Position numbers and translations under genes: made by a program
In this document: piece after piece, positions 3,025-49,340 of the stretch
Layout: each line of letters begins with the position of its first letter
How positions within the stretch are numbered: position 1 is the first letter of the stretch
Notes under the pieces: model-generated
Database searches by the model: none
Told to the model about the DNA's origin: nothing
The model's input: only the letters and a program-made list of their open reading frames with translations
Source of the DNA: Gossypium raimondii
Taxonomy: Eukaryota > Streptophyta > Magnoliopsida > Malvales > Malvaceae
Assembly (NCBI RefSeq): GCF_025698545.1
Contig: NC_068577.1
Coordinates: 2,823,501-2,887,500 of the forward strand
Length of the DNA: 64,000 nt
Direction of reading: 5' to 3'

Positions 3025-3469
3025 AGGATGTTTAAACTTCGATTAAAATTAAATTAATTGATCGAATCGATCTAATTCAGTTAATCGGTCAGTTAATCGA
3101 TCTAATTCGGTTGGAGGTCGGTTAAAGGTTTTCTGGAATTTTGGTTAACGGTTAATCCGGTTTGAAATCGAGTAATTAACTGAATTTAATAAATAATATT
3201 ATATATTAATACATGTATTAGGCTATTACTAATTCAGTTAACTCGATCAAATGAACATTATAAATTTATTTTTTTGATATATTTTATACTTGTTTTAACA
3301 AAAAAAACATATAAATTTCGGTTAATTCAGTTAACCGACCGAATTAATTGAAATATTTCGATTCGGTTAATTTCTTTTGAAAAATTTTTGGTTCGGTTAA
3401 TAGTTAAAGGATTAAAAACTTTGGTTAATTCGGTTAATACTAGTTCGGTTAAACGTTTGAACACCTCTA
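3025..3469. mobile_element. MITE of the AGG..GTGTTCA / GAACACCTCT family
   Basis: The left end (AGGATGTTTAAAC) and the right end (GTTTGAACACCTCT) are inverted repeats, and the interior is made of CGGTTAATTCGGTTAA-type words in both orientations. The flanks TTGTTTATT and CTGTTTACC are compatible with a decayed 9-base target duplication of the MULE type. It is related to the better preserved element at 55379-56002. Confidence 0.6.
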
Positions 3470-3881
3470 CTGTTTACCTCAACTTTTTCTATAAATAGGA
3501 AAATAATAGAAAAATAAAATATGTTTGAAGTTTTTATGTTTTTCTTTTTATATTTGATTTTTTTAGTAATTTAGTTTCTCGATTTTTAGGTTTCAAAATT
3601 TAAATCTAATTTTTAACGTTGTTAAAATTCTTCTATTAATTTTATTGGTGTGACATTTTGAAAAAAATGATAATCATGTGACGTAGAAAATAGTGGTACA
3701 ATGAATTTGAATTTAACAAAAGCATTTTGATAGTATTAATAATTGGACTTGCATTATTAAATCTAAAAAGTAAAGAGACAAAATTTATTGAAATAAACTT
3801 AGAAAGACTAAATTCTAAATTTATGATTATTACAGGGACTTCGAGCATAATTTAACCGAAAAGGCAAAAATTTAGAAAACA
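3470..3881. other. AT-rich spacer with a decayed foldback repeat
   Basis: Between the MITE and the tRNA gene lies AT-rich sequence. Part of it (about 3540-3860) has opposed AAATTTAAATCTAATTTTTAA-like arms similar to the repeat at 28613-28947. No gene was found. Confidence 0.35.
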
Positions 3882-3976
3882 TCCGACCTGCCGGATTCGA
3901 ACCAGCGACCTAAGGATTTTTACTGCAAGGCTATGCCCACTACAGTCCTCCGCTCTACCAACTGAGCTAAGGTCGG
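3882..3976 (-). tRNA. tRNA-Tyr (anticodon GUA) with intron
   Basis: Read on the minus strand, the gene starts CCGACCTTAGCTCAGTTGG (acceptor strand, A box) and ends with a T arm GGTTCGAATCC and GGTCGG pairing to the 5' end, plus discriminator A at 3882. The anticodon GTA is complementary to 3941-3943. A 22-base intron (about 3918-3939) follows position 37, as is usual for plant tRNA-Tyr genes, leaving a 73-base mature tRNA. A CCA tail is not encoded, as expected for a nuclear gene. Confidence 0.95.
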
Positions 3977-4118
3977 TCTTGTGCTAGCTGCTAGCAAACA
4001 ATTTAAAAATATTAAGTTTTGGTTTTCTTGACTTTATACCATTAGTGATAACAGATTTTTATTTATATAGATAACATACAATTGATACATGATTTATAAG
4101 ATTCACCATGTTGCAGTT

Positions 4119-4649
4119 AGACCTATTCATGAATCGAGTTATTTATTTAGGTTTAAAGGTTTGCTTGAAATTTAAGAGAGTTTGGGTAAAAATATTATGC
4201 TCGAAAAATAAGCTTGATTAAAAAAAGTAGGCTCGTTTAAAATATGCTTGAACCTGGCCTGACTCGTTTTTAAGTTTATAATACTTTATATTATGTTATT
4301 TTTATATATTATATAAATTATAACATATTAAAAAGATAAATCTATACTAAATATATAATACTACTCTAATGTAGACATTAAACAAATGTTAAGATGACTA
4401 TATAAAAATTTAAATAAATAAAAAAATAAAATTATTAAATATTTAATTAAAATAATATAAGTTTTTTAAAAAATATATAGGCGTGCCTAAAATGAACTTG
4501 GGTTAGTCTTTTGTAAATATAGACGAACTTGAACAAAATTTTAAGCTCATATTTCAGGTCGGACCAAGCTTAGACAAGTATAAAGTATGTTAATATCATG
4601 CTTAAGTTCTACTCGAACCTAACCCCGACCCGATTAATGAACACCTCTA
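4119..4649. mobile_element. MITE with AGACCTATTCATGAA / TTAATGAACACCTCT ends
   Basis: The two ends are imperfect inverted repeats (AGACCTATTCATGAATCG on the left; CGATTAATGAACACCTCT on the right). The interior has many GGCTCGxxT/AxCGAGCC-type words in opposed orientation around an AT-rich centre. It has no coding capacity. The terminal GAACACCTCTA word is shared with the elements at 3025 and 55379. Confidence 0.55.
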
Positions 4650-4839
4650 CTCCCAAATATATGGCTACCAAAACCAGAAGTCAACATTTAAAACAATGCT
4701 TAATATATAAATTGGTTCCTATAAAATAGTAATATTACCAATTTAGTACTTTACAATATTTCTGTGATCAATTTGATACTTTACAATATTTTTACGAAAC
4801 AAAATATGCTGAGAAGAGAAGATATGCGACGGACTTTTA

Positions 4840-5169
4840 CTTTGAAGAGAAGATGAAGAACGGAAGAAGGAGAAGGAGCCTTACCTGGATGAAGGAGGAA
4901 CTGGAAAAGGTCCTTGACCAAACTGATTTGTAACCCAAAGGGAAGGAGAAGGGGAAGGGGAAGGGGAAGGGGAAAGGGGAGAAGAAGGCGTCATTTTCCG
5001 GAAAATGTCTTAACGAATTCAAAAGGGTAAGATATTTTCCTAAAAAAAACCTTCTTTTCCCGTGTTTTGTAAAATATTTTACCATAGAAAATCATTTTCA
5101 ACCAACCAAACATCAAAAAAGCCTGAAAAGCTTTTACGGAAAAGCTTTTACAAGTTACCAAACGGAGCC
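4840..5169. mobile_element. End segment of the Harbinger-like family seen at 19367-22074
   Basis: The right end reads CCAAACGGAGCC followed by TTA (5170-5172), which matches a PIF/Harbinger-type terminus with TTA target site. Inside it are GGAAAATGTCTTA, CCCGTGTTTTGTAAAATATTTT and a purine-rich GAAGGAGAAGGAG...GGATGAAGGAG block. The same modules occur in reverse order just inside the left end of the rhomboid-carrying element at 19367. No matching left end is recognisable, so it looks truncated. It ends about 270 bases before the eS25 start codon. Confidence 0.55.
4943..4979. repeat. GGGGAA minisatellite
   Basis: There are about five consecutive copies of a six-base unit GGGGAA/GGGGAAG within the purine-rich subterminal part of the transposon remnant. 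Confidence 0.8.
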
Positions 5170-5237
5170 TTAAATTTCATACGAATGCAAGGGATTTCAA
5201 TGAGTTTTTTTAGAAGTGTCTAAGTTTTAAAGTTTTA

Positions 5238-5392
5238 GTGGGCTTAGTACAACCCATTGTCACTTTTAGTTGGGCTGGGCCTTTATCTTCGGCTTGTCAA
5301 TGGTTTAGGGTTTCAGTTTGATAATTAAAAGACTTCTTCCCGTTGTGGTCACACTCTCAGCTCAGGTAGCGCCGACCAACCCTAGGGTTTGA
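5238..5392 (+). promoter_or_regulatory. eS25 promoter: site II elements and telo-boxes
   Basis: Upstream of the eS25 start are three TGGGCY words (GTGGGCTTA at 5239-5247 and TGGGCTGGGCC at 5271-5281) and two AGGGTTT telo-box cores (TTTAGGGTTT at 5304-5313 and CCTAGGGTTT at 5381-5390). The pairing of site II motifs with a telo-box is the well-known promoter signature of plant ribosomal-protein genes. The motifs are seen directly; their activity is inferred. Confidence 0.7.
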
Positions 5393-5443
5393 CAAACCTC
5401 TCACAGCCCCTCACCTTTTCCATTATTCACTTCGGCAGATTCC

Positions 5444-6974
<1,531 letters not shown>

Positions 6975-15966: not shown

Positions 15967-18900
15967 ACCAGATCGGATCTTAAATTACTTTCACGGAAAG
16001 CTCTGAGCTTGGAATCGAAAGGGCACCATCGAAAGCTGTCACGGTCCATTGCGGGAAGAAGGTTCTGAAGGTGGCATTTGCAGCATTTTGCCCTGGGAAA
16101 AGTAAAACAAAGAAGCTCCACTACTATGAATTACTTTTTATGTAAATTACAAGCTCTTTTTGCAGTGTAAGGTAGATATTAGATATGTTAGTTGGCTAAG
16201 CAAAATAAATCAAATGGCTAAGGGGCCCTTTGTTTCTTTTTCTGTTAGTAGAGTAATTTCTTTTTGAGGAAATGAAGGGTTAATGCTTGTAATTTATCCC
16301 TTTCATGCATTTAATTTATCTCTGCAAGGCGAAGTCAGAAATTAAATTATATATTTTTATATTTTATAATTTTAATAGCCTATATCTTTATAATTTTTTA
16401 AGGGTTAAATTAAATTTTTATCATAATTTAAAATTTTATATATTATAAAGAAGATTAAATAGAAAATTTTTTATTTTAAAGAGGTTAACCTCCTGCCAGC
16501 TCCCCTAAATTTGCCACTGTAATCCCAGTTGGGTTTTAATCCTTTTGATAAATAAAAAAATTATTTTGGAAAATGCTTATCAAACTTATTAGTATTTATT
16601 TATTTCTAAGTGCTATTAATGAAAAATACTTCTTCAACTATGTTTCTTAGAACCCAAACACCAATTTTTAAAAGTTATTTAATTTTGGTAAAATAATTTA
16701 TTTGGCATTCTATAAAAAGTTATTTTAGTTATTTATTTAATTTTTTTGCCTTATCTTTTAAACTTGCATTATTTGTCAAATTACTCCAAAATGGATAGAA
16801 AAATTGATGTTTGTTAGCTTTGTTATGGATTGTTATATGGATGCCACGTCAGCAACTAAATTTTTTAGAATTTTAAAATTATTAAAATTATTTAAAATAA
16901 AATAAAATATTAATTTTAAAAAAATAATTAATTGCTAACGTGACATACACGTGATACCATGGTAACAAAGTTAACAAACGTTAACTTTTTTATCCATTTT
17001 GGGATAATTTAACAAGTAATGCAAATTCAATGACTAGAAGAGACGAAAAATTAAACGAAAAGCTAAAATAATTTTTTTTAAGTTAAAGGGTCAAATAAAT
17101 CATTATACTTTTAATTTTTCATATTTACTCGGAAAATAAGACAAAAGATTGCAGTATTGAATGGAACAACTAAAATAATTCTAAGGAAAAAAGTAAGAAA
17201 GAATATCTTAAAATTAAAAGAAAATATTAACAAAATAGTACTCAATGCTTAATCTTATAATAATAAATTAAAATGGCAATAAAATATTACTCAAGGTTTG
17301 TTAATTTTGAAAATAACATGTATTCAGAAGAAGAATACCCTAATTTTTACAAAACTAAAATTTTAGAATTTGATATTAGATTAAGGGAAAAAATAAAAGA
17401 TTGCTACCTAAGTCTGACTTAAAATATGAGTATTAATTTGTGCTCAAATTTACTTATATTTGTAAATGGTTAACTAAAACCGTTTAAATCATCAATATTA
17501 TTTTTATTTTAAAAATAATTATTTTATTTATGAATTATAGATTCTTTACTACAACTATATAATTTTCCTTTTATTAAATTTTCTAAACATAACAATTTAA
17601 TATTTATATTATAATATATTATATTTTCTATATGATATATAGATTAGTAAAATAAATAAAAAATAATATATTATAAACTTGAAAATAAGTGGATTAGGCT
17701 TGGGCTTTTAATATGGAGTCAAGCCTGATCTAAGTTTATACAGGCTTAATTTTTTTCCCAAATCTATTTTTTGTGCTTTATATTTTTGTCCAAACTTCTC
17801 AAATTTTGAATGAGCTTTTGAACTTAGGTGAGTAGCTTGATGCTTAAATTATGTAATTGTGTAATTACAATTTGTATAGATGACGTATAGAATTACGATA
17901 TAATTACATATTGTCCGCCAAACACGTCTAGGGAATTAAAATTCTTTATGGTTACTAGTAATTACACTTTCATTCAATTATTTGGGGTGCCAAACAGACC
18001 CTAACTAAAAAAATTGACTTCAAAATTAAAAGGTTTAATACCTCATTTGACCCTTATACATTACAAAAAATCTTAATTTGGTACTTAAAAGAATTTTTTT
18101 GGTCACTTAGGCCCTGTGCTATCATTTAGTCTATTTTGTTACCTCATTTGACATTTCTAATAAAAGAAAACTCATAAACCTACCATGTGTTCACAAAAAA
18201 AAAAACAGAAAAATCATTAAATCATTAAAAATGCAAAAATTCTAAATTTTTCTTAAAAATATAATATATTATAATGTATACAAATTTACGTATCAATGTA
18301 AAAAAGTTTGAAACAAAATAATATATAAGAAAAATGGTAACTACACCTAATAGTAAGTTTACACTTTGGTCACTCAATTTCAAAAAAAATTATATTTGAA
18401 ATCTAAAGTTATAAGTTGGCCACTGACTCGTTAACTTGGTAATGAATGTCAAATATGACCATTAATTCACTATTCACATAGGGTAATTACGCCCAAGGCC
18501 ACTCAACTATTAATAAGTTTACATTTTGATTAGTTATTTTTTTAAAAAAAATTACAAGTTGGTCGTTAAGCAATTTGAAAGTTTTAGGGACCTCATTCAC
18601 AATTGTATTTCAGTAATTTCACCACTGTTCGACCTCCTGGTTTAAACCCAAAGTTCTAATGTAGAAGCTTTCCGATCTTCATCCACCATCATCGGATGAT
18701 CGCTTGACTCTAATATGTTATTCTTCTTAGCTAGACTTCCCCGTTTTGGATTGATCCTCCTCACATGGAACTTTTTGACTAACTCTTGACCGGATCTAAT
18801 ATATTTGAGTTTCCCTTTTCTTTTGATATTTGATTCTATTTTCTTTACTTTTATTTTGTCTCTTTCCTTTAGTAGATCCTGTTTGAGGCTCACTAAAACA

Positions 18901-19363: not shown

Positions 19364-19920
19364 TTAGGGTCTGTTTGATAGGGGGAAAATATTTTCTGGA
19401 ATTGATTTTCCCCATTTTTCAGTGTTTGATTGAAGGAAAATATTTTCCTTTTGGAAAATCAACTACAAAACACGGGAAAATGCCTTACAATTTTGGGAAA
19501 TTGTCTTACCGATTCAATCTCCGTAAGACATTTTCCTAAAGCTCTCGAGCATTCTTCTCCTTCATCTAGTAAGCTCCTTCATCCATTCTTCTCCTTCCTT
19601 CATTCCTTCAAATTTCCGTTATTGAAAGCTTCATTTTGGTTCGGAATCTGAAACCGCTCTTTGATACGTTGCAATTCCATTTCCATTTTTCGACGGTTAC
19701 TTCGTTTATTTTTCATTTCTTTTGGCTTTTATGCTCTGTTTATTTTTCATTCCTTTTTGGTTGCTCTGCGCTTGCCATTTCGCTTTCAAATGATGGGTAA
19801 GCTTCCTTCTTCTTTTATTCTTCGTTCGGTTGTTAATGCTGGAAGCCATCTTTCTAATTTCCACTCTTTCTTCTTCTTCTAACACCATTGCTACCCACAT
19901 CGACTGCCTAAGTAAGAAAC

Positions 19921-21142
19921 TGTCCTAAGAACAATCAGGGATTTGAAGGTGGTTGTGTGGCTAGGTTCCTTGGCAGGCTTTCTTTTGAACCTTTGAAAGA
20001 AAATCCTCTCTTTGGTCCTTCTTCTAATACGTATGTATCATGTTCCCCCTATCTTTAAATTTCACTTCTTTTTACTGTCTCTGGTTTTCTGAGATTTTGT
20101 TCAGTTTTTGTGTTTTTTTTAATGTGATGGGAAATTGGGTTGGAATTAAAGTTGAGGGTCCTTTTGCAACTTTCAATTCTAAAGAAGAGGAAAAAAATTG
20201 CTTGCAAGTTTTAGATATGGACTACGGTATCTTTTAGAAGTTGTTCATGTAGGAAGTTCTTATTTGATGATTCAACTGCAGTTCCCAATTGATCTTCTAT
20301 AGGATTATCCTTGGATCATGCTAAAGGATATATCAATCTGTGATTTATTTTGATTCTATTGGAAATTTGTGTCTGATATGATTGATACTATTTAAGGTTA
20401 TTATTAGATTTGTTCTTCCTTGTTCATTTAGCAGCAATAGGAATTCTCAATATGAAATGTCATGGTTTGCTTTGTCTATAGTAGGGGTGTAAAGGTGCTT
20501 GCAAACTACTTGAAGAAAGACTCGAACTCGGTCGAGCTATCAATTGAGTCAAATTTGAGCTTTGTTAAATAATGGCATGTCTGGAAATCATGGACTGGGT
20601 AATGAAGTTAGTTGCTTTGTTAATTTAAGGATTAATGGTTTTATAGGAACTTAAGTTAGTTGCTTTGTTAATTTGGGTAATGAACTTTGTCTGGAAATCA
20701 AGGACTGGTTAATGAAGTTAGTTGATTTGTAGCTTTATTTTGTTTTTGTATGGTCTAATGTAAATCCTAATGTTTCGATAGTAATCGGGTAGAAGTTCGG
20801 TTTTGGCTATTGTCATTCAAGATGTAAATGATGTCGAACATTTTATATCCTTATGGCTTAGCAACCCTTTTTTTATAATGCCATGTAAATGCGTTGATAA
20901 TCGCGAGTTGTTTAATTTTATGTTGTTCTTTCTCCTCCTCCTTCAGATTGGAAAAATTGGGAGCCTTAAAATGGGACAAGGTAGTGCATGGCAATCAAGC
21001 GTGGAGGCTTATCACTTGCATCTGGCTGCAAGCTGGTGTTATTCATCCGCTTGCAAACATGTTGAGCTTGATCTTCATTGGAATTCGCCTTGAACAACAA
21101 TTTGGATTCAAGATCGTTATCTTCCTTTTTGCAGTTGTATAA
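19921..21142 (+). pseudogene. Rhomboid-like intramembrane protease, truncated fragment
   Basis: Two exon pieces remain. Exon A (19921-20030) encodes [20 protein letters not shown] then [16 protein letters not shown]. Exon B (20947-21142) encodes [20 protein letters not shown], then a segment with [18 protein letters not shown]. The splice phase joins correctly (AC|A) with GT donor and AG acceptor, so intron structure was carried along, which excludes a processed copy. This is the conserved N-terminal half of plant RBL proteins, covering the loop after TM1 and TM2. The catalytic GASG serine and the later histidine are absent, because the frame ends in TAA at 21140 right after RLEQQFGF. An in-frame TAA lies immediately 5' of exon A, and no TM1 or start is seen. 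It cannot encode an active protease. Confidence 0.8.
20577..20732. repeat. Local duplication in the rhomboid fragment's intron
   Basis: The words CTGGAAATCATGGACTGG and TAATGAAGTTAGTTG occur at about 20580-20615 and again at about 20692-20727 with a few changes; a GTTAGTTGCTTTGTTAATTT word also recurs. This suggests a ~110-base internal duplication. Confidence 0.6.
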
Positions 21143-22074
21143 TATTTCTAGAATATGTAACATTTATAAGCATTTTGTCAATCTTTGGTTGGTTTTTTAA
21201 TTGACATATGTTCTTTAATTGACAACAATTTGGATTCAGTACGTTATCTGTTCCTTTGCATTTTTGTGTGCTGAGATCAATATTTACTTTCTCTGAGGTC
21301 GTATCTATAATCTAACTTTGTCTCTTTGGACATTAAAGGATGAAAGTTTAATTATTAGAGATACAATATCTCTAGTTTCCGCATTAAATCGTTCAATCGG
21401 CATACAACCATGACTTGTGCCGATACAAGTGCCTTGAAATTGTTCATTGGGGCATTCATCTACTTGTATTCACGAAGCGACTTGTTGAAAATAAGTGTGC
21501 AAGGGCCCCAAAACATGTCCTAACACCTAAAATCAATCCAAAACCATTACCAATCATTCCCTAATATTTCTAAACATTATAAAACATAAAACACCATCAA
21601 ATCAACATATATTCCAAATAAAGCTCAACCAAGTTCACAGAGCTAACAAAATATTCAAGATGCGATGAGATTAGTTAAGATAGTAACTTCGCTTTAAGTC
21701 GAGCCTTTACCTACGCGTTGAAAAAATAATATGTTAAGCTTGTAAAAACTTAGTAAATAGTCAAGAATTAAGCTTTCCTTTGCAAGTAATCAATATTAAA
21801 CATATAAATACCTTGTTTATGATATATTAAAATGGAATTAAGTAGACATTAAGCATTAAGATTCTCAAAACTATTTATTATATGTTACTAATCAATTCAC
21901 TAATAAATTTCACTTACCATTTCATTTTAGCCCAAATATAGATTTAATAGGACATAAGGATATGTGGATAGAACACTGAATCACTAGAACAAATGTAAAA
22001 ATAACTTTTCCGGAAAATATTTTCAGGAAATCTGTCAAATAACAGAAAATATTTTACAGGCAATCAAACGGACC

Positions 22075-22778
22075 TTAAACTTTCACTAAAAACGTTTGCT
22101 CGTTTCTCGCTTCCCCATACAACGTCAAAGAAACGGAAATCAGTTTCTGGGAGAGTCGGAGTCCAAAGTTTAACAACGGAGAGTCCTTTGAGGTCAGCCC
22201 ATTTTTCTACTTCAAAATTTTAATCTTTTAATGCATTTATTACAAATATTTAATCTTCATGCATTCAATCATTATTAAAAAAAAAATTAATAGTAGACTC
22301 TTTACTTTCAATGATATATGCTGTGTAAATCTAGGGTTTTGGTTGTTCTGGTTTTGGAAAGCTTTTTTTTTTTATTATGAATGCTAAGTTGTTGTTTGGT
22401 TGGTCAGAAAGCTGAGGTGGAAGTTTGGTGATGGGTGATTGATTTTTTGTCCAGTAATTGATGGGATTTTTTTCTTTTTATATCTGTTCCTAGATTCTGG
22501 GCATAAAAGCAATATTTTTCCTTGTTTCTTGAACAAACATAATCTTAGGGTTTTCTCTACATTGTATTCATTGATTGAGAATTACTAGCTACATTTTTGT
22601 TTTTCATTGCTCATGGTGTTAAGTGGTGATATCTGATGATTTACTGCTAGTAGTGCTTAAATTGATGGAGTGTTTAACCATAGTTTATGAGTGTTTATTT
22701 ACAACAAACCTAATGAATCTTTGTGCTTAAGTTGACTGGGTTCTTCTCTTATGATGTAGGAATTGAAGCTAATACTGA
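22075..22778 (+). other. RER1 upstream region with probable 5' UTR intron
   Basis: A purine-rich leader at about 22120-22193 ends CCTTTGAG|GTCAGCC, a plausible donor, and a matching acceptor GATGTAG|GAATTG lies 21 bases before the RER1 ATG. A leader intron of ~570 bases is therefore likely but rests only on splice signals. Confidence 0.45.
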
Positions 22779-24100
22779 ATGGAGGGTATTGGAGGTGATA
22801 GGGCACCAGTGGCCTCACCTTTGCCTCAATGGGGGCATGATACTTGGAGGATGTATCAGTATTATCTAGATAAGACTACTCCTCATACAACTTATAGATG
22901 GATGGGAACCCTTGTTATAGCAGCTATATATTGTTTACGAGTCTATTCTGTTCAAGGTTTTTACATAGTCTCATATGGCCTTGGGATCTACCTTTTGAAT
23001 TTGCTTATCGGGTTTTTGTCTCCTCTGGTTGATCCAGAACTTGAAATTTCTGATGGGCCTCTACTGCCAACAAAAGGATCAGATGAATTCAAGCCGTTTA
23101 TTCGTAGGCTACCTGAGTTTAAGTTCTGGTAATTGAAGCTTTATATATTGCTTCTCGTCTATAATGATGCTTTACAGGCATTTTATTGGTGGCATTGTTC
23201 TGTTATGTTTTCTATGCTGAAATCTTTGTGATATGTTTATAAGGGACACACCTTACCTATTTAGGCCAAGTTAAAGGCATTGCCTGATTGTTCATATTGA
23301 TGGAAACATACCCTTTGTCGTTTACCAAAATGGAGAAGATGTGGAAACATGTGATACCTGACTTGATATTGCAGTCTTTTATACCTATTCAATGCCTGAC
23401 TTAAAGATGTGGAAAATGCGTAAAAGCGTTAGCTCTCATCTGTCAAATCCAGTAGTCATTACCTTCTCATGCATTTTACTGCTTATTTAGAATGTAGAAT
23501 TTTTTACTTCTTTTTCCAAGGAAGTACAGTTTAGAAATGTATTTTCCATTCATAGCATAGAAATGCCGGTCATTATTTATCGTAGTCAGTCATATTTCTT
23601 CATCCATTTGGGAATTTGTTTTCTTGCTTGAGGTCTATGTGAAATTGTGCTTAATGAATGGGCATTTTGAGTATGTGTGTAATACCTCTGTTTTATAATT
23701 TTTGCAGGTACTCCATGACAAAGGCTTTCTACATAGCATTTGTTATGACTTTCTTTTCCTTATTTGATGTTCCTGTCTTTTGGCCTATACTACTTTGTTA
23801 CTGGATTGTTCTTTTTGTCCTCACGATGAGGCGTCAGATTGCACATATGATCAAGTACAAGTACATCCCCTTGAACATCGGAAAGCAGGTGAGCTTCCAA
23901 CGCATAAATTAGCTCCCACATTTATAATTTTAACCATATCAGTGTGCACGTTTTTCTTCTACTTTTAATCACTAGAGGCAACCTGGAAGTTCAGTCTCTG
24001 GCATCTATCTGCTTGAGAGATAATTATCTCCTTCCATATTTGACAGAAGTACACTGGTAAGAAAGCTTCTACGAGTGGCAGCAGCTTGTGTGGGGATTGA
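22779..24100 (+). CDS. RER1: RER1 family ER-retrieval receptor
   Basis: Exons are 22779-23128, 23708-23888 and 24047-24100 (194 aa; plant RER1 proteins are about this long). RER1 is a four-pass membrane protein of the cis-Golgi that returns ER membrane proteins such as Sec12 to the ER in COPI vesicles. Visible hallmarks are the N-terminal cytosolic [19 protein letters not shown], a first hydrophobic pair (about residues 42-78, with [20 protein letters not shown]), the polar loop PLVDPELE...[29 protein letters not shown] across the first junction, a second hydrophobic pair (about 124-160), and the basic tail [20 protein letters not shown]. The start codon opens the family-typical MEGIGG N-terminus. 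The gene appears intact. Confidence 0.96.
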
Positions 24101-25122: not shown

Positions 25123-27249
25123 TTAACAAGGAGGAAGGTCCTTTGGAGGAGGCAAAATGGACTGATCGGGTCCCTTTCCATTCTCTACCACAAAAGCAGT
25201 CTTCAAACCCCACCCTGTATGCAGCTCCAAATGGCAGTGCATGAACCAAACTCCTGAAGAATGGAAAACGAATGATTTAGAACTACTACTTTCCAATATT
25301 TGAGTGTCACCAATGTTACATGTTTAGTTTGTGGTGAACCTTACCTGGATTATCTGCCCGGAACCTTATGGCGGTCCAACCGCCTGTCGGTACTCCAACC
25401 GTATTCCTTTCTGGAGGATCAACCAAGTTAAACTTAGCAGGATCTTTTGCGGGATCGAAGTTCCCGATTCCAGTCCTAACAACGAAGAAATTGTAACCAT
25501 GAAGGTGGAATGGATGGGATTCAACAGTTAGAAGATTGGTATCCTGCAGTACTAACTCTACTGTTGAGTTGAATGCAATCTTGCTTAGCCTGGTACCCGA
25601 AGTGGTAGCAAGATTTGCAGTCAATGGTGCACCGGTGTAGTTGAACGGTTGAGGAGGGCGGTCGGGGAAATCCGCAGTATATACTCCCTTGATGTTGAAA
25701 TAATGAGCTTGCAGAAGCCCAATATGTGGCATAACAAAGGTAATGTTGTTCAAGGATGCAGTGAGTCGTGTTCCGTTCAAGCAGGTTGGACATGGGTTAA
25801 TTCCTAACCCGATAGTGTAGAAAAGACGCCTGTCAACTTTAAGAGGCACATTTGCAGGGTATAATGGAGAGTTCAGGCTCCTAAGTTTGGCATTGTAGCT
25901 CAATGCAAAGGCAGTGTCATTGGGTAATGGCAGCTTAGGAAGGATTGGGAGGATGGTGTTGGGAATGCCTTTGTACTGAAGTATAGCCGTTGCGGTTTTA
26001 TTGTCTACCGTCAATGGTGCATCCATAAAAGGCCTAGCGGCCATGAAATATCTACCAGGTGCTTGGTTAGCTTGAACAAGGACATTTGTGGTCTGCCCTG
26101 GTGCAATTAAAATTGCTTGTGTGGTAAATGGTTTGGTATAAACTGCATCTATCTCGACCACTGTCATATTATGGCCTGCGACAGCAAAGAAAAGTTCGTC
26201 GTTGAGTGCAGCATTGATGATTCTCAAGAGATATGTCTTTCCTTGTTCAACCTCCATTGCAAATGTATCTGCACCAGAAAAAGGAAAGTAAAATAAGAAA
26301 GAATGCAGGGCCTGTCCTGAATCCCCTATTTACTCGCTAAGCTTACGTTTCTCGGAACATGGGAACAATGGCCCTGGCTTTCCATTAATGGTGTGAGCAT
26401 CGGATGTATTTGGTGGCAACCCCAACTTGTTCCCTTGTTTCACAACTTCTTCGACATCGTTATTCCACCATTCACCTGCGTTTCGATTAACAAGAATTAC
26501 ATGAATTGTGCAACTAAAATGGAGCTCAGCTCGCCATTATGGATCAAATCATCCCACCTAAAACTATGTTAGTTTCTCTGTAAGGCTGAGGAAAAGGGAA
26601 AGGGGTCCCTTGCTTTGGCATGATCGCAATTGCACCATAAACAGTGGCTCTTAGCCAAAAGATATGTGCATGCCACCATAGTGTCCCTCTTTGACCTGTT
26701 ACATTAAAGTCATACGTGTAACTATGCCCGTTCTGTATAGGGCATTGTGTTATATAAGCTGGTCCATCTGCCCATCCATTGCGAAGCTGTTTAAGCCCAT
26801 GCCTGCCAATGCCATGAAACAAACCCAGCATTAGTAGACAACAATTTTGGAAAAAGAAATATGACAAAATGATGCATTGCTTACCAATGAATTGACATGT
26901 TATATTGTGCATAGTTTGTGACATTAATGACAACTCTATCGCCGTCTCTAGCGTATATGGTTGGCCCTGGAAACATCCCATTCACTGTAACGATAGGTTT
27001 AGCATGGCATAACCTGCTAACGTTTTTCACTTGAACCTGAAACAACATTTCAATGATCATATTCTAAAAGAAAGAAATGCAGCTAAAAAGTGAATATATA
27101 CAAACAACATTGCCACTGATTTAACTAAATATGCCTACATCGAACTGGTATCTTTTCACTGCTGCATCTGCAGGAAGCGAAACCAAGGCAACCAAATAAA
27201 GCAAGAAAAGCAATATTGGCCCTGAGCTCAAAATTTTGCCCATTGCCAT
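25123..27249 (-). CDS. Laccase, copy 1 (secreted multicopper oxidase)
   Basis: Minus-strand exons: 27139-27249, 26885-27036, 26558-26802, 26347-26475, 25345-26268, 25123-25253; GT-AG introns, 563 aa, full family length. Laccases oxidise monolignols and other phenolics in the cell wall, reducing O2 to water with four coppers. A signal peptide (about 1-30, [10 protein letters not shown] then a Leu-rich core ending ADA) precedes three cupredoxin domains. All copper motifs are present: HWHG (87-90), HAH (132-134), HPFHLHG (464-470) and [12 protein letters not shown] (526-537) with axial Leu. The C-terminus PPPKDLPPC resembles the LAC5/LAC12-like group, but this is a tentative match. Residue 477 is Arg where copy 2 and most family members have Gly (VVGTG). 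A miR397-type site overlaps the INAALND codons. TATAAAAG lies at 27301-27308, 52 bases upstream of the ATG. Confidence 0.95.
26199..26219 (-). promoter_or_regulatory. Predicted miR397 target site in laccase copy 1
   Basis: The mRNA segment encoding INAALND pairs with miR397 (recalled sequence) over 21 nt with one mismatch at miRNA position 3 and one G:U at position 15. Positions 10-11, where cleavage occurs, are paired. This is the standard location of miR397 sites in plant laccases. Cleavage itself is inferred. Confidence 0.75.
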
Positions 27250-39879: not shown

Positions 39880-42383
39880 GCCCCTTTAAAATTTATAAAT
39901 TTGACTATTTTACCAATAAAGGCTCATTTCTAACTTTATTTATGGAAATGAACCAATTTTTTAATTATTTACCGGAAAAGGCTGAAAAATGCAAAACGCG
40001 TCCACGTAGGAGCGTTTTTGGGTGAAATTTCAGCAAATCACGTCCCTAGGAGAGCGATTTTGCCATATCAGCACAAAACGCGCTAACGTGGATGCACTTG
40101 GCTGACGTGGCAAAATCGCTCCCATAGGGATGCGTTTTAGCCCATAATTTTTTCCCCAACGGCTATTTTAATTTTTGATCGTTGGGGGGTCCAATGGTAA
40201 AAAAAAAACTATAAAACCCCATTCCTATTTTTTCCACACAATATTTCTTCCAAATTTGGCAAAAAAGCTATCAAATTCTCCCTAAATTTCTCAAAGCTTT
40301 CTTTAATTAATTATTTCTTTTAATTCTTTTCTAAATTAATATTTTTTTTATAATTTCAAAAATATTTGATCGTGTTAGCAATGACCGAGGGAATTAATTC
40401 GTCTTGATCATAAACATATCTCCGTCGAACAAATGAAAATGGTAAGGGTTAATTTTAATTTTTGAATATTATTTAATATTTTTTCATTTATGTAATTTTA
40501 ATTAATTTTTATTTTATAATTTTTTATAACAGTCTGTAGATTGGGTGTTACAATATTATATTCGTAATATGTCTAGTCCTCCATTACCGTTGATAGAAAA
40601 TTACTTGAGGGAAGCGGGTTTTTGGCACGTGGCCACTATAGGCCGGGGGTGCAAGTTGGACCTTAAACTTATCAGCGCGTTAATAGAGAGGTGGAGACTC
40701 AAGACGCACACATTCCATCTTCTATGCGGAGATTGTACCATCACTTTGGGGGACGTACAGTTACAATTAATATTGCCGGTGGATGGGTCCACACTCACCG
40801 AGTCCGTTCAATCTGCTGATTGGGGAGCCATATGCTACGATCTTTTGGGGGCGATTCTAGATAATATTTACGGAGGTCAGATCGAGATGGACTGGTTACG
40901 AGACACAATCCCGGAGCCGGGGAATGATTTGACTGAAGTAGAAAGAATACGATATGATCAGGTAAATATCATTGAGATGATTGGAGGTTATCTGATGCCG
41001 GACTTGTCACGAAACCTCGTACATCTGAGGTGGCTGCTTAAACTCGTTGATTTTAAAGCAATTGGCGAATTTAGTTGGGGGTCTGTCGTGTTGGCAACGT
41101 TGTACCGGGATATGTGCGAGGCGACGACACCAAATAAAGCCAAAATCGGAGGTTGTCTATCACTACTACAATCATGGGCTCGGTTTCGCTTTCCATTTCT
41201 ATGTCCTCGAGTGAATCACCTATATACATTCCCACTCATAACGAGGTAAAATTTATATTATATTTTACAATTATTACATAGATTTAAAATATAATTGTAT
41301 GCTAAAAATTTATTTAATTAGGTGGAACCATTCGACGAGTTATGTTGGAATACCTACCGCTCTTGAAGATATACGGCTTCTATTAGACCAATTGTTGGAA
41401 GCTCAAGTAAGTATTAAATAAAATATATATACATAAAATAGTAGTTTCATATTTAGTATTTAGTATTATGTATATAACTAATATTTTTATCACTTTCATA
41501 TAGTTTCAATGAACACCATACGAGGATCCGACAATTTGGGCACTAATTCCAGATGAATTCTTTTAAAATCCAAACATTTGGCATGTTAAGGTCCCATTGG
41601 TCAGCTATGCTACTGTCGAGATGCACCAGACGGATAGAGTGTTGCGACAATTTAGATTCCGACAACCGATTCTCGTGGCACCTGAGGTGCTCGATGATAA
41701 GCACAAAATTGACTTACGGCAATCGAATACAAATTGGCTAGTTTTATGGTCGGAATATATCAAAATTTAGGAAAATTTGTATGATCATATACCTACTCGC
41801 AAACCGATCATCGTTCTAGAGTTAGCGTGCGCGCCAGATTACATGCCATTGTTTAGGATCTATGGCAAGCCATATTTGCTGTTGGAAGAGCAGATGCGTC
41901 GGTAAATTCGTGTCAAAAGGGAACGATGGGGCCTTTTAAATCTAAGGAGAATGGATGATGGCACAGGCCCATCAACAGCGCCCACACAATTTCCGGGCCC
42001 AACACTTCAACCCTGATTTATTCCTTAAACCTAAATTATTTTAACAAAACCCTAACCCTAAACCCTAAAACCCCTAAATTAAACAACCATAGGGACTAAA
42101 CATGCAAAAAGCCCTAACCCTAGAAAAACACGGGCTAAAATGCGTCCCTGGGGAGTGGTTTTGCCACATCAGCAAAACGCATCCACGTCAGCGCGTTTTG
42201 TGCTGACATGGCAAAATTGCTCCTCTAAAGACTTGATTTGTTGAAATTTCACCCAAAAACGCTCATACGTGGATGCGTTTTGCATTTTTTTGGCCCTTTC
42301 TGGTAAATAATGAAAATATTGGCCTATTCCCGTAAATAAAGTTGGAAATGAGCCTTTATTGGTAAAATGGTCAAATTTGATGC
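39880..42383 (+). mobile_element. MULE-like transposon encoding a plant mobile domain (PMD/MAIN-like) protein
   Basis: Long TIRs (roughly 39898-40180 and 42130-42379) share AAATTTGAC(C/T)ATTTTACC, GGCTCATTTC, the GCGTTTTTGGGTGAAATTTC block and GATTTTGCCATGTCAGC words in opposite orientation. Between them lie a leader and a broken PMD gene. The left end interrupts a purine-gene exon-1 fragment; the right end is followed by the same upstream block that follows the truncated copy at 39485. No transposase was recognised, so mobilisation would have been in trans. The precise ends and the target duplication are not resolved. Confidence 0.7.
40569..42016 (+). pseudogene. PMD (MAIN/MAIL1-like) protein gene, degenerate
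   Basis: Pieces: 40569-41245 (open), 41322-41406, and 41504-42016. Exon 1 gives MSSPPLPLIENYLREAGFWH, ISALIERWR, THTFHLLCGDCTITLGDVQL, ADWGAICYDLLGAI, a WLRDTIPEPG loop, and LSLLQSWARFRFPFLCPRV. This is the transposon-type plant mobile domain also found in MAIN and MAIL1. Exon 2 continues WNHSTSYVGIPTALEDIRLL. Exon 3 has a TGA as its third codon (F-Q-stop where W is expected) and further in-frame stops (for example after PDEFF, YIKI and EEQMRR) but keeps family words such as NIWHVKVPLVSYATVEMHQT and DRVLRQF. The gene is dead in its C-terminal half. PMD function in transposons is unknown. Confidence 0.8.
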
Positions 42384-47196: not shown

Positions 47197-49340
47197 TTAA
47201 CAAGGAGGAAGGTCCTTTGGAGGAGGCAAAATGGACTGATCGGGTCCCTTTCCATTCTCTACCACAAATGCAGTCTTCAAACCCCACCCTGTATGCAGCT
47301 CCAAATGACAGTGCATGAACCAAACTCCTGAAGAATGGAAAACGAATGATTTAGAACTACTAATTTCCAATATTTGAGTGTCACCAATGTTACATTTTTA
47401 GTTTGTGGTGAACCTTACCTGGATTATCTGCCCGGAACCTTATGGCGGTCCAACCGCCTGTCGGTACTCCAACCGTATTCCTTTCTGGAGGATCAACCAA
47501 GTTAAACTTAGCAGGATCTTTTGCGGGATCAAAGTTCCCGATTCCGGTCCCAACAACGAAGAAATTGTAACCATGAAGGTGGAATGGATGGGATTCAACA
47601 GTTAGAAGATTGGTATCCTGCAGTACTAACTCTACTGTTGAGTTGAATGCAATCTTGCTCAGCCTGGTACCCAAAGTGGTACCAAGATTTGCAGTCAATG
47701 GTGCGCCGGTGTAGTTGAACGGTTGAGGAGGGCGGTCGGGGAAATCCGCAGTATATACTCCCTTGATGTTGAGATAATGAGCTTGCAGAAGCCCAATATG
47801 TGGCATAACAAAGGTAATGTTGTTCAAGGATGCAGTGAGTCGTGTTCCGTTCAAGCAGGTTGGACATGGGTTAATTCCTAACCCGATAGTGTAGAAAAGA
47901 CGCCTGTCAACTTTAAGAGGCACATTTGCAGGGTATAATGGAGAGTCCAGGCTCCTAAGTTTGGCATTGTAGCTCAATGCAAAGGCAGTGTCATTGGGTA
48001 ATGGCAGCTTAGGAAGGATTGGGAGGACGGTGTTGGGAATGCCTTTGTATTGAAGTATAGCCGTTGCGGTTTTATTGTCTACCGTCAATGGTGCATCCAT
48101 AAAAGGCCTAGCAGCCATGAAATATCTACCAGGTGCTTGGTTAGCTTGAACAAGGACATTTGTGGTCTGCCCTGGTGCAATTATAATTGCTTGTGTGGTA
48201 AATGGTTTGGTATAAACTGCATCTATCTCGACCACTGTCATATTATGGCCTGCGACTGCAAAGAAAAGTTCGTCGTTGAGTGCAGCATTGATGATTCTCA
48301 AGAGATATGTCTTTCCTTGTTCAACCTCCATTGCAAATGTATCTGCACCAGAAAAAGGAAAGTAAAATAAGAAAGAATGCAGGGCCTGCCCTGAATCCCC
48401 TATTTACTCGCTAAGCTTACGTTTCTCGGAACATGGGAACAATGGCCCTGGCTTTCCATTAATGGTGTGAGCATCGGATGTAGTTGGTGGCAACCCCAAC
48501 TTGTTCCCTTGTTTCACAACTTCTTCGACATTGTTATTCCACCATTCACCTGCGTTTCGATTAACAAGAATTACATGAATTGTGTAACTAAAATGGAGCT
48601 CAACTCACCATTATGGATCAAATCATCCCAGGATCAAATCATCCCACCTAAAACTATGTTAGTTTCTCTGTAAGGCTGAGGAAAAGGGAAAGGGGTCCCT
48701 TGCTTTGGCATGATCACAATTGCACCATAAACAGTGGCTCTTAGCCAAAAGATATGTGCATGCCACCATAGTGTCCCTTTTTGACCTGTTACATTAAAGT
48801 CATACGTGTAACTATGCCCGTTCTGTATAGGGCATTGTGTTATATAAGCTGGTCCATCTGCCCATCCATTGCGAAACTGTTTAAGCCCATGCCTGCCAAT
48901 GCCAATAAACAAAACCCAGCATTAGTAGACAACGATTTTGGAAAAAGAAATATGACAAAATGATGCATTGCTTACCAATGAATTGACATGTTATATTGTG
49001 CATAGTTCGTGACATTAATGACAACTCTATCGCCGTCTCTAGCGTATATGGTTGGCCCTGGAAACATCCCATTCACTGTAACGATAGGTTTAGCATGGCA
49101 TAACCTGCTAACGTTTTTCACTTGAACCTGAAACAACATTTCAACAATCATATTCTAAAAGAAAGAAATGCAGCTAAAAAGTGAATATATACAAACAATA
49201 TTGCCACTGATTTAACTAAATATGCCTACATCGAACTGGTATCTTTTCACTGCTGCATCTGCAGGAAGCGAAACCAAGGCAACCAGATAAAGCAAGAAAA
49301 GCAATATTGGCCCTGAGCTCAAAATTTTGCCCATTGCCAT
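47197..49340 (-). CDS. Laccase, copy 2 (secreted multicopper oxidase)
   Basis: Minus-strand exons: 49230-49340, 48976-49127, 48648-48892, 48421-48549, 47419-48342, 47197-47327. Exon lengths are identical to copy 1 (563 aa). Same signal peptide and all four copper motifs, so an apoplastic phenol oxidase is expected. Differences from copy 1 that I can see are few: L94F, R126K and A>V (GAIVIM) in exon 3; in exon 5 L>I (AIIIAPG), I>V (NTVLP), N>D (RSLDSP), F>L (HYLN), A>G and S>L (ANLGTTLG), and Gly at 477 (VVGTG) instead of Arg. It therefore keeps the family consensus better than copy 1. Intron 3 has a 16-base tandem duplication next to its donor. The miR397 site is unchanged. Confidence 0.95.
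48273..48293 (-). promoter_or_regulatory. Predicted miR397 target site in laccase copy 2
   Basis: Same 21-base site as in copy 1, over the INAALND codons; the same single mismatch and G:U pair against miR397. Confidence 0.75.
48615..48646. repeat. 16-bp tandem duplication at laccase copy 2 intron 3 donor
   Basis: GGATCAAATCATCCCA occurs twice in a row; copy 1 has it once. The exon boundary and GT donor remain. Confidence 0.9.

What the first reader, a model, noticed from the sequence alone, without database searches (positions are those of the whole stretch)
19364..22077. TIR element that has picked up two exons of a rhomboid protease gene
Seen: inverted ends (GGGTCTGTTTGAT / GGTCCGTTTGAT read inward) each abutted by TTA, opposed GGAAAATATTTTC subterminal words, and between them two rhomboid exons with a correctly phased intron but no catalytic Ser/His, no TM1 and no transposase. 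Known: PIF/Harbinger and Tourist elements use TTA/TAA targets; Pack-type elements carry host gene fragments. Inferred: a Pack-Harbinger-like element in cotton, and a family with another member at 4840-5169 lacking the rhomboid part.
Basis: partly seen in the sequence, partly recalled or inferred. Interest (0 to 1): 0.75.

Follow-up and report, generated by a model that had tools for sequence, protein, structure and literature searches.

The report
Cotton Pack-PIF transposon with rhomboid exons
This is a real, non-autonomous cotton transposon that picked up pieces of two ordinary plant genes (a PPR gene and a rhomboid gene), was copied to several chromosomes and lost part of its cargo; it belongs to a known kind of gene-carrying transposon, but here the donors, siblings and a likely helper could be traced.

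Summary
Confirmed: window 19364-22077 is a 2.7-kb PIF/Harbinger-type element with TIRs and TTA duplications, holding two RHOMBOID-like exons; the genome is very probably Gossypium raimondii. Six copies found carry rhomboid DNA. The donor, a five-exon RBL2-like gene, lies at C2:45,644,770-45,647,005. About 3 kb was captured, from within exon 1 past the end of the gene; the window and C7 copies share a deletion of exons 3-5. The element is a double capture: 19762-19920 is the 5' end of a PPR gene from a C5 cluster. Sister elements with the same ends carry PPR, glycolate oxidase, eL34 and (weakly) valyl-tRNA synthetase fragments. Thirteen of 13 elements with both ends in view have matching 3-bp duplications, and the C3 copy has paralogous empty sites with a single TAA. 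A relative at C2:7.900-7.906 Mb with related ends has DDE_Tnp_4 and Myb/SANT coding stretches, a probable transposase source. Pack-PIF elements, one with two gene fragments, are described in maize and rice (PMC8903248), so this is a new, well-resolved member of a known kind.

The parts
19364..19366 (.). left copy of the 3-bp target site duplication, TTA
   Evidence: 13 of 13 family elements with both ends in view have matching 3-bp duplications
19367..19567 (+). PIF/Harbinger left terminal region, TIR GGGTCTGTTTGAT plus subterminal repeats
   Evidence: shared with siblings; 77% identical over 203 bp to the left end of the transposase-coding element at C2:7900210
19568..19761 (+). family-specific left interior, pyrimidine-rich, origin unknown
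   Evidence: shared by siblings; no match in the PPR loci L045/L046 or in L073
19762..19920 (+). first capture: 5' end of a PPR gene (start codons, transit-peptide-like region)
   Evidence: 94.5% identical to L045 (q399-557) and 95.5% to L046 (q406-557), PPR loci of the C5 cluster (cluster); siblings continue into PPR repeats
19918..20030 (+). second capture: 3' part of rhomboid (RBL) exon 1; junction overlap AAC at 19918-19920
20031..20946 (+). RBL intron 1, phase 2, GT..AG kept
   Evidence: colinear with donor L011
20947..21110 (+). RBL exon 2
21111..21217 (+). start of RBL intron 2, up to the deletion point (donor L011:3240); the GT splice donor is altered here
21219..21257 (+). about 40-bp filler copied from the exon 2/intron 2 boundary (donor L011:3112-3156), where 1,049 bp with exons 3-5 is missing
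   Evidence: the C7 copy aligns through it in one piece and has the same deletion
21254..21996 (+). DNA from beyond the RBL coding region (donor L011:4290-4431 and 5300-5910)
21993..22074 (+). PIF/Harbinger right terminal region (internally shortened) with TIR; junction overlap ATGT
   Evidence: the same right-end motif lies about 1.8 kb beyond a DDE_Tnp_4 match in six elements and 3.3 kb in a seventh
22075..22077 (.). right copy of the target site duplication, TTA
4977..5172 (-). distant relative of the left terminal region (about 67-70%); one end only; not part of the element itself

Best explanation
The window holds a non-autonomous PIF/Harbinger element of the Pack type. Shown: the element's ends belong to a multi-copy family; between them lie the 5' end of a PPR gene (donor cluster on C5) and an RBL2-like segment (donor on C2); six copies at different places carry RBL DNA; the window and C7 copies share a deletion of exons 3-5 with copied filler DNA, so the shortened form moved again. 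Inferred: the PPR piece came first (sisters have it without RBL) and RBL later; pieces were copied in during repair of a break inside the element, switching templates at short matches (this step about 0.6); movement was by DDE_Tnp_4 plus Myb/SANT proteins of relatives with the same ends; the cargo makes no working protease here and the copy is a decaying passenger. The confidence below is for the identity as a Pack-PIF element.
For: Copies at other loci with the same two ends. Donor gene with five exons and no element end in the 8 kb fetched. One right capture junction in all six RBL copies (four aligned; L012 and L013 read), and 22 of 1,348 shared sites at which all six copies differ from the donor. 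Window and C7 copies share the 1,049-bp deletion. Matching duplications in 13 of 13 elements with both ends seen, out of 16 examined. Empty sites for the C3 copy: 38 of 46 matches to the joined flanks run across the junction (of the other 8, two are the element's own flanks and six cover only the right side); the two fetched (L070, L071) read straight through with one TAA. Sister elements with the same ends and other cargo. A relative at C2:7900210-7905997 with related ends, TAA on both sides, Pfam DDE_Tnp_4 and Myb_DNA-bind_3. Seven of 49 listed transposase matches in the compared part of the genome lie within 5 kb of one of 100 listed right ends, each on the same strand; random placement gives a mean of 0.19 and a maximum of 3 in 2000 trials.
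Against: No clean empty site was found for the window insertion itself: of 9 matches other than its own flanks, six reach past the junction, by 15, 15, 8, 5, 3 and 2 bp, the first three at 76-82% identity. Junction overlaps of 3-4 bp are too short to prove a mechanism. The C13 copy (and by BLAST extents C12 and C2) joins PPR and RBL at another point, so the original left junction is not known. All seven transposase matches linked to these ends have in-frame stops within the match (2 to 4 each), perhaps an intron, which was not tested; so an intact autonomous partner is not shown. The random-placement control does not allow for clustering of transposons. For three of 16 elements (L013, L018, L022) no complete right end was found.
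Confidence: 0.96

Rival explanations
1. A degenerate RBL gene duplicate (segmental or tandem) into which two unrelated small elements inserted at either side, giving a false pair of ends.
For: Small elements with related ends exist (L024 is 596 bp) and the right-end motif is frequent (280 exact).
Against: The same left end + PPR piece + RBL + right end occurs at other loci with other flanks; the right capture junction is the same in all six copies; the duplications match at each locus with both ends seen.
Confidence: 0.01
2. Same identity, other way of uptake: fusion of two neighbouring insertions. Related elements landed on both sides of the RBL segment, the outer ends were used as one element and the inner ends decayed (the model given for Pack-TYPE elements in PMC8903248), rather than copying during break repair. 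This competes only with the uptake step of the best explanation.
For: Proposed for Pack-CACTA and, from structures, for Pack-PIF (PMC8903248, section 9); the RBL segment has element DNA on both sides.
Against: The donor locus shows no element end in the 8 kb fetched and its exon 1, where the segment starts, is open. A later deletion in the element carries copied filler DNA, as template-switch repair would leave.
Confidence: 0.3
3. The chimeric product is functional: the PPR-derived leader and splice donor drive a fusion transcript with rhomboid exons that has been kept by selection.
For: A G. hirsutum gene model (P0001, 207 aa) joins a leader from the element to rhomboid exons 1-3; its first rhomboid exon, junction residues included, is identical to the window in 40 of 40 residues.
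Against: It is a predicted model; its leader was found in no other protein among the 2 candidates. In the window, exons with the catalytic residues are missing, the HxxxxH motif reads Q for the first H, the exon 2 splice donor is altered and the frame closes soon after exon 2.
Confidence: 0.04

Closest known systems
Pack-PIF elements of maize and rice (Gisby and Catoni 2022, PMC8903248; passages and section 9 read)
   Same: PIF/Harbinger ends, mostly TTA/TAA duplications, host gene fragments inside, multi-copy clusters, stepwise gain of fragments from two genes (Zm-Pack-PIF cluster 18: 163 bp and 58 bp).
   Different: Cotton; capture of about 3 kb with several exons and introns; fragments of at least four host genes across the family; donor and a transposase-coding relative located.
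Pack-MULEs (Mutator-like; recalled)
   Same: Non-autonomous, carry introns and exons of host genes, may join several genes.
   Different: Mutator ends and longer (8-11 bp) duplications; here PIF/Harbinger ends and 3 bp.
Tourist MITEs / PIF-Harbinger non-autonomous elements (recalled)
   Same: Same kind of ends, TTA/TAA targets, no transposase.
   Different: Tourist MITEs are short and carry no gene pieces; a short relative here is L024 (596 bp).

Membership tests
PIF/Harbinger superfamily (non-autonomous member) | 3-bp TTA/TAA target site duplication | tested here: met
   TTA here; 12 of 13 family elements TTA or TAA, one TTC; empty sites of the C3 copy have a single TAA
PIF/Harbinger superfamily (non-autonomous member) | ends shared with an element that encodes DDE_Tnp_4 transposase and a Myb/SANT-like protein | tested here: met
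   C2:7900210-7905997: left end 77% over 203 bp and right-end region 86% over 80 bp with the window element, 91-92% over about 180 bp with the C7 and C3 copies; Pfam PF13359 (two open stretches) and PF12776
PIF/Harbinger superfamily (non-autonomous member) | mobilisation by that transposase | not testable with these tools
   needs an excision or transposition assay
Pack-TYPE (Pack-PIF) element | non-autonomous, no transposase between the ends | tested here: met
   no transposase among ORFs of 100 aa or more; transposase-coding relative matches only the terminal regions
Pack-TYPE (Pack-PIF) element | contains a copy of host coding DNA with the donor gene elsewhere | tested here: met
   donor RBL at C2:45.645 Mb and PPR cluster on C5
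Pack-TYPE (Pack-PIF) element | cargo moved with the ends (more than one copy) | tested here: met
   six RBL-carrying copies
Tourist-type MITE | short (under about 600 bp, recalled), no host gene cargo | tested here: not met
   2,714 bp with cargo from two genes
rhomboid protease gene | catalytic Ser and His with six or seven membrane helices (recalled) | tested here: not met
   exons 3-5 absent

The most novel reading that the evidence does not exclude
One PIF/Harbinger family in cotton acts as a repeated exon collector: starting from a PPR 5' end with start codon and transit-peptide-like sequence, its members have joined pieces of a rhomboid, glycolate oxidase, eL34 and probably valyl-tRNA synthetase gene behind that same leader, so that several unrelated cargoes are offered to the cell with one leader, and some fusions are expressed and kept.
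Probability: 0.12. Interest if true: 0.65.

Novelty: new member of a known kind. Interest (0 to 1): 0.42.

Why it matters
Pack-type elements shuffle exons, but the order of events is not often visible. Here ends, donor genes, longer and deleted derivatives, an empty site and a transposase-coding relative lie in one genome, so capture, deletion and spread can be read off. The PPR donors form a large cluster of C5 genes resembling restorer-type PPRs (that likeness is from recall). Element-borne PPR pieces can mislead annotation: some Gossypium gene models match the interiors of these elements, including element-specific tails (P0123, P0130, P0172).

Tried and rejected
Two independent insertions flanking a decayed RBL duplicate: rejected by copies at other loci. 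Two-exon capture: rejected, the C3 copy and the donor show that a much longer stretch was taken and later lost. 4840-5169 as a full sibling: not supported (one end, about 67-70%). An end-like motif near 18005 (minus) was seen; its partner was not sought further. A search for annotated proteins with the element-derived leader of P0001 found only P0001 itself (1 of 2 candidates). The window junction had no clean empty site. The 14-base TIR pattern with 3 mismatches in the window was at chance level. An 868-bp stretch of the donor locus (L011:4432-5299), absent from the window, C7 and C3 copies and inside a larger absence in the other three, could be a later insertion in the donor or an early loss in the element; not resolved. 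The excess of C>T and G>A changes in copies is weak as a contrast with the donor, because changes seen only in the donor may have happened on either branch. Papers: search listings (none found; 20 of 48 listed; 3; 19; 10 of 28 listed; 10; 1; 2); PMC8903248 passages and section 9 read; PMC13317346 passages read; no other text opened.

Full report
WHAT IS THERE. The window lies at G000:C13:2823501-2887500 of a 750.8-Mb assembly. Contig C5 is 57,139,304 bp long, the same length as the contig behind a G. raimondii protein (P0170), so the plant is very probably Gossypium raimondii. The element runs from TTA at 19364 to TTA at 22077. Its outer parts are PIF/Harbinger ends; its middle is mostly rhomboid DNA with exon 1 (3' part), intron 1, exon 2 and part of intron 2, followed by DNA from beyond the rhomboid coding region. 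It ends about 700 bp upstream of the ATG of an RER1 gene at 22779 (Pfam Rer1).

COPIES AND DONOR. A genome search with the element gave a 96% copy at C7:29416287-29418992 and partial matches at C3, C12, C2, C13 and elsewhere (40 of 1480 candidates were scored, so counts are lower bounds). Sixteen loci were fetched. Six copies, the window included, carry RBL DNA. A protein search with a G. arboreum RBL (P0003) found the donor at C2:45644770-45647005, with matches covering all of P0003 in five exons and 98% identity over exon 1; stops flagged in the exon 4 match lie in read-through intron. No element end was found in the 8 kb fetched there. The donor matches the copies from L011:1954 to L011:5910. 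The C3 copy holds L011:1959-4431 and 5300-5910. The window and C7 copies both lack 3241-4289, with a roughly 40-bp filler copied from the exon 2/intron 2 boundary. The C12, C2 and C13 copies share other deletions. Donor 4432-5299 is in none of the six. Distances (Jukes-Cantor): donor to copies 0.039-0.053; window to C7 0.027. On the 1,348 columns present in all, the tree puts window+C7 together (100) and C12+C2+C13 together (100); the place of C3 is weak (55).

TWO CAPTURES. The first 557 or so bases of the element are shared with elements of other content. In those, the reading frame that begins near window 19790 continues into PPR repeats (Pfam PPR_2, E=4.3e-18). The same DNA occurs in a cluster of PPR genes at C5:50.75-52.44 Mb, up to 95% identical to the sister element L017 (40 of 949 candidates scored). 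Two cluster loci compared directly with the window element match window 19762-19920 at 94.5% (L045) and 19769-19920 at 95.5% (L046). The simplest order is PPR first, RBL later. Junctions: right, donor ...AATGT joined to element ...ATGTAAAAC (overlap ATGT), the same in all six copies (window, C7, C3, C13 aligned; C12 and C2 read); left, in window, C7 and C3, overlap AAC. In the C13 copy (and by BLAST extents C12 and C2) the PPR piece is about 80 bp longer and RBL begins in intron 1, so both left junctions may be later deletions of one longer arrangement.

THE WIDER FAMILY. Elements L019, L020 and L021 also contain stretches matching a predicted G. barbadense protein (P0172) that joins PPR (17-73), a valyl-tRNA synthetase-like piece (74-106; weak: PDB E=5e-5, Pfam below cut-off), glycolate oxidase (106-138; PDB E about 1e-12, Pfam FMN_dh 4e-8) and eL34 (170-222; PDB E=8e-12, Pfam below its cut-off). 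Matches to the glycolate oxidase and eL34 pieces lie elsewhere in the genome (for example C1:3025151 and C12:46410188), as candidate donors, and the synthetase-like and eL34 pieces also occur near each other at C12:39.89, C9:33.03 and C9:17.23 Mb, so some cargo may have come from another repeat. P0001 of G. hirsutum (D11) shares the window's PPR-RBL junction (40 of 40 residues) but keeps exon 3.

MOBILITY. Among 16 elements examined (window plus 15 of the 16 loci, L011 being the donor), both ends were located in 13, and all 13 have equal 3-bp flanks: TTA 7, TAA 5, TTC 1; for L013, L018 and L022 no complete right end was found. Joining the flanks of the C3 copy gave 46 genomic matches, 38 of which run across the junction; two of the rest are its own flanks and six cover only the right side. 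The two fetched show one TAA and no gap. For the window copy there are 9 matches besides its own flanks; six reach past the junction, by 2 to 15 bp, and the three best aligned read on at 76-82% identity. The right-end motif occurs 280 times, control 0. Seven of 49 listed DDE_Tnp_4 matches on C1-C5 (C5 to 25.07 Mb) are within 5 kb of one of the 100 listed motifs, on the same strand, six of them at about 1.8 kb and one at 3.3 kb beyond the match; random placement gives 0.19, at most 3 in 2000 trials. Both lists were cut by the tool, and the control ignores clustering. At one of the seven, C2:7900210-7905997, both ends match the family and TAA flanks both sides; it has DDE_Tnp_4 in two open stretches and a Myb/SANT stretch. 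All seven have 2 to 4 stops inside the DDE match; whether that is an intron or decay was not tested. The last 535 bp of this element are 90% identical to the sister element L017.

INTERPRETATION. How DNA was taken up is less sure. Copying during repair of a break is favoured by the donor without element ends and by copied filler at the later deletion; fusion of neighbouring insertions, the model of PMC8903248 (section 9), is not excluded. Function of the cargo is unlikely: the window copy lacks the exons with catalytic residues. Of changes seen in one copy only, 52 of 114 are C>T or G>A, 33 of these 52 in CG or CHG context; of sites where only the donor differs, 5 of 32 are C>T or G>A in that direction, but their branch is not known. 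This is compatible with decay of methylated transposon DNA and is not proof. No age is given because I have no sourced rate.

NOVELTY. Pack-PIF elements, and even stepwise gain of two gene pieces, are in print for maize and rice. I saw no report of such a family in cotton in the listings, which cover open-licence papers only (one search listed 10 of 28).

Noticed in passing
window 4977-5172 (-): Distant relative (about 67-70%) of the element's left end, CT-rich beyond it; no second TIR seen.
   Followed up: partly
window ~18005 (-): TTAGGGTCTGTTTGG, another PIF/Tourist-like end about 1.4 kb from the element; partner end not determined.
   Followed up: no
window 25316-26329 and 47390-48403 (-): Two very similar multicopper oxidase (laccase-like) ORFs of 337 aa about 22 kb apart (Pfam on the first).
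   Followed up: no
window 40530-41249 (+): Plant mobile domain (PMD) ORF, Pfam E=3.4e-39.
   Followed up: no
window 22779-23132 (+): RER1 gene start; the element sits about 700 bp upstream of its ATG.
   Followed up: partly
window 3882-3976 (-): tRNA-Leu gene (ARAGORN).
   Followed up: no
L018 (G000:C5:51164000-51171000): A family element lies inside the PPR cluster that supplied the PPR piece; its right end was not seen.
   Followed up: partly
G000:C12:39.89, C9:33.03, C9:17.23 Mb: Synthetase-like and eL34 pieces occur together within about 1.3 kb at three places, as if a second repeat family carries them.
   Followed up: no
L011:4432-5299: 868 bp present in the donor locus and in none of the six copies.
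   Followed up: no
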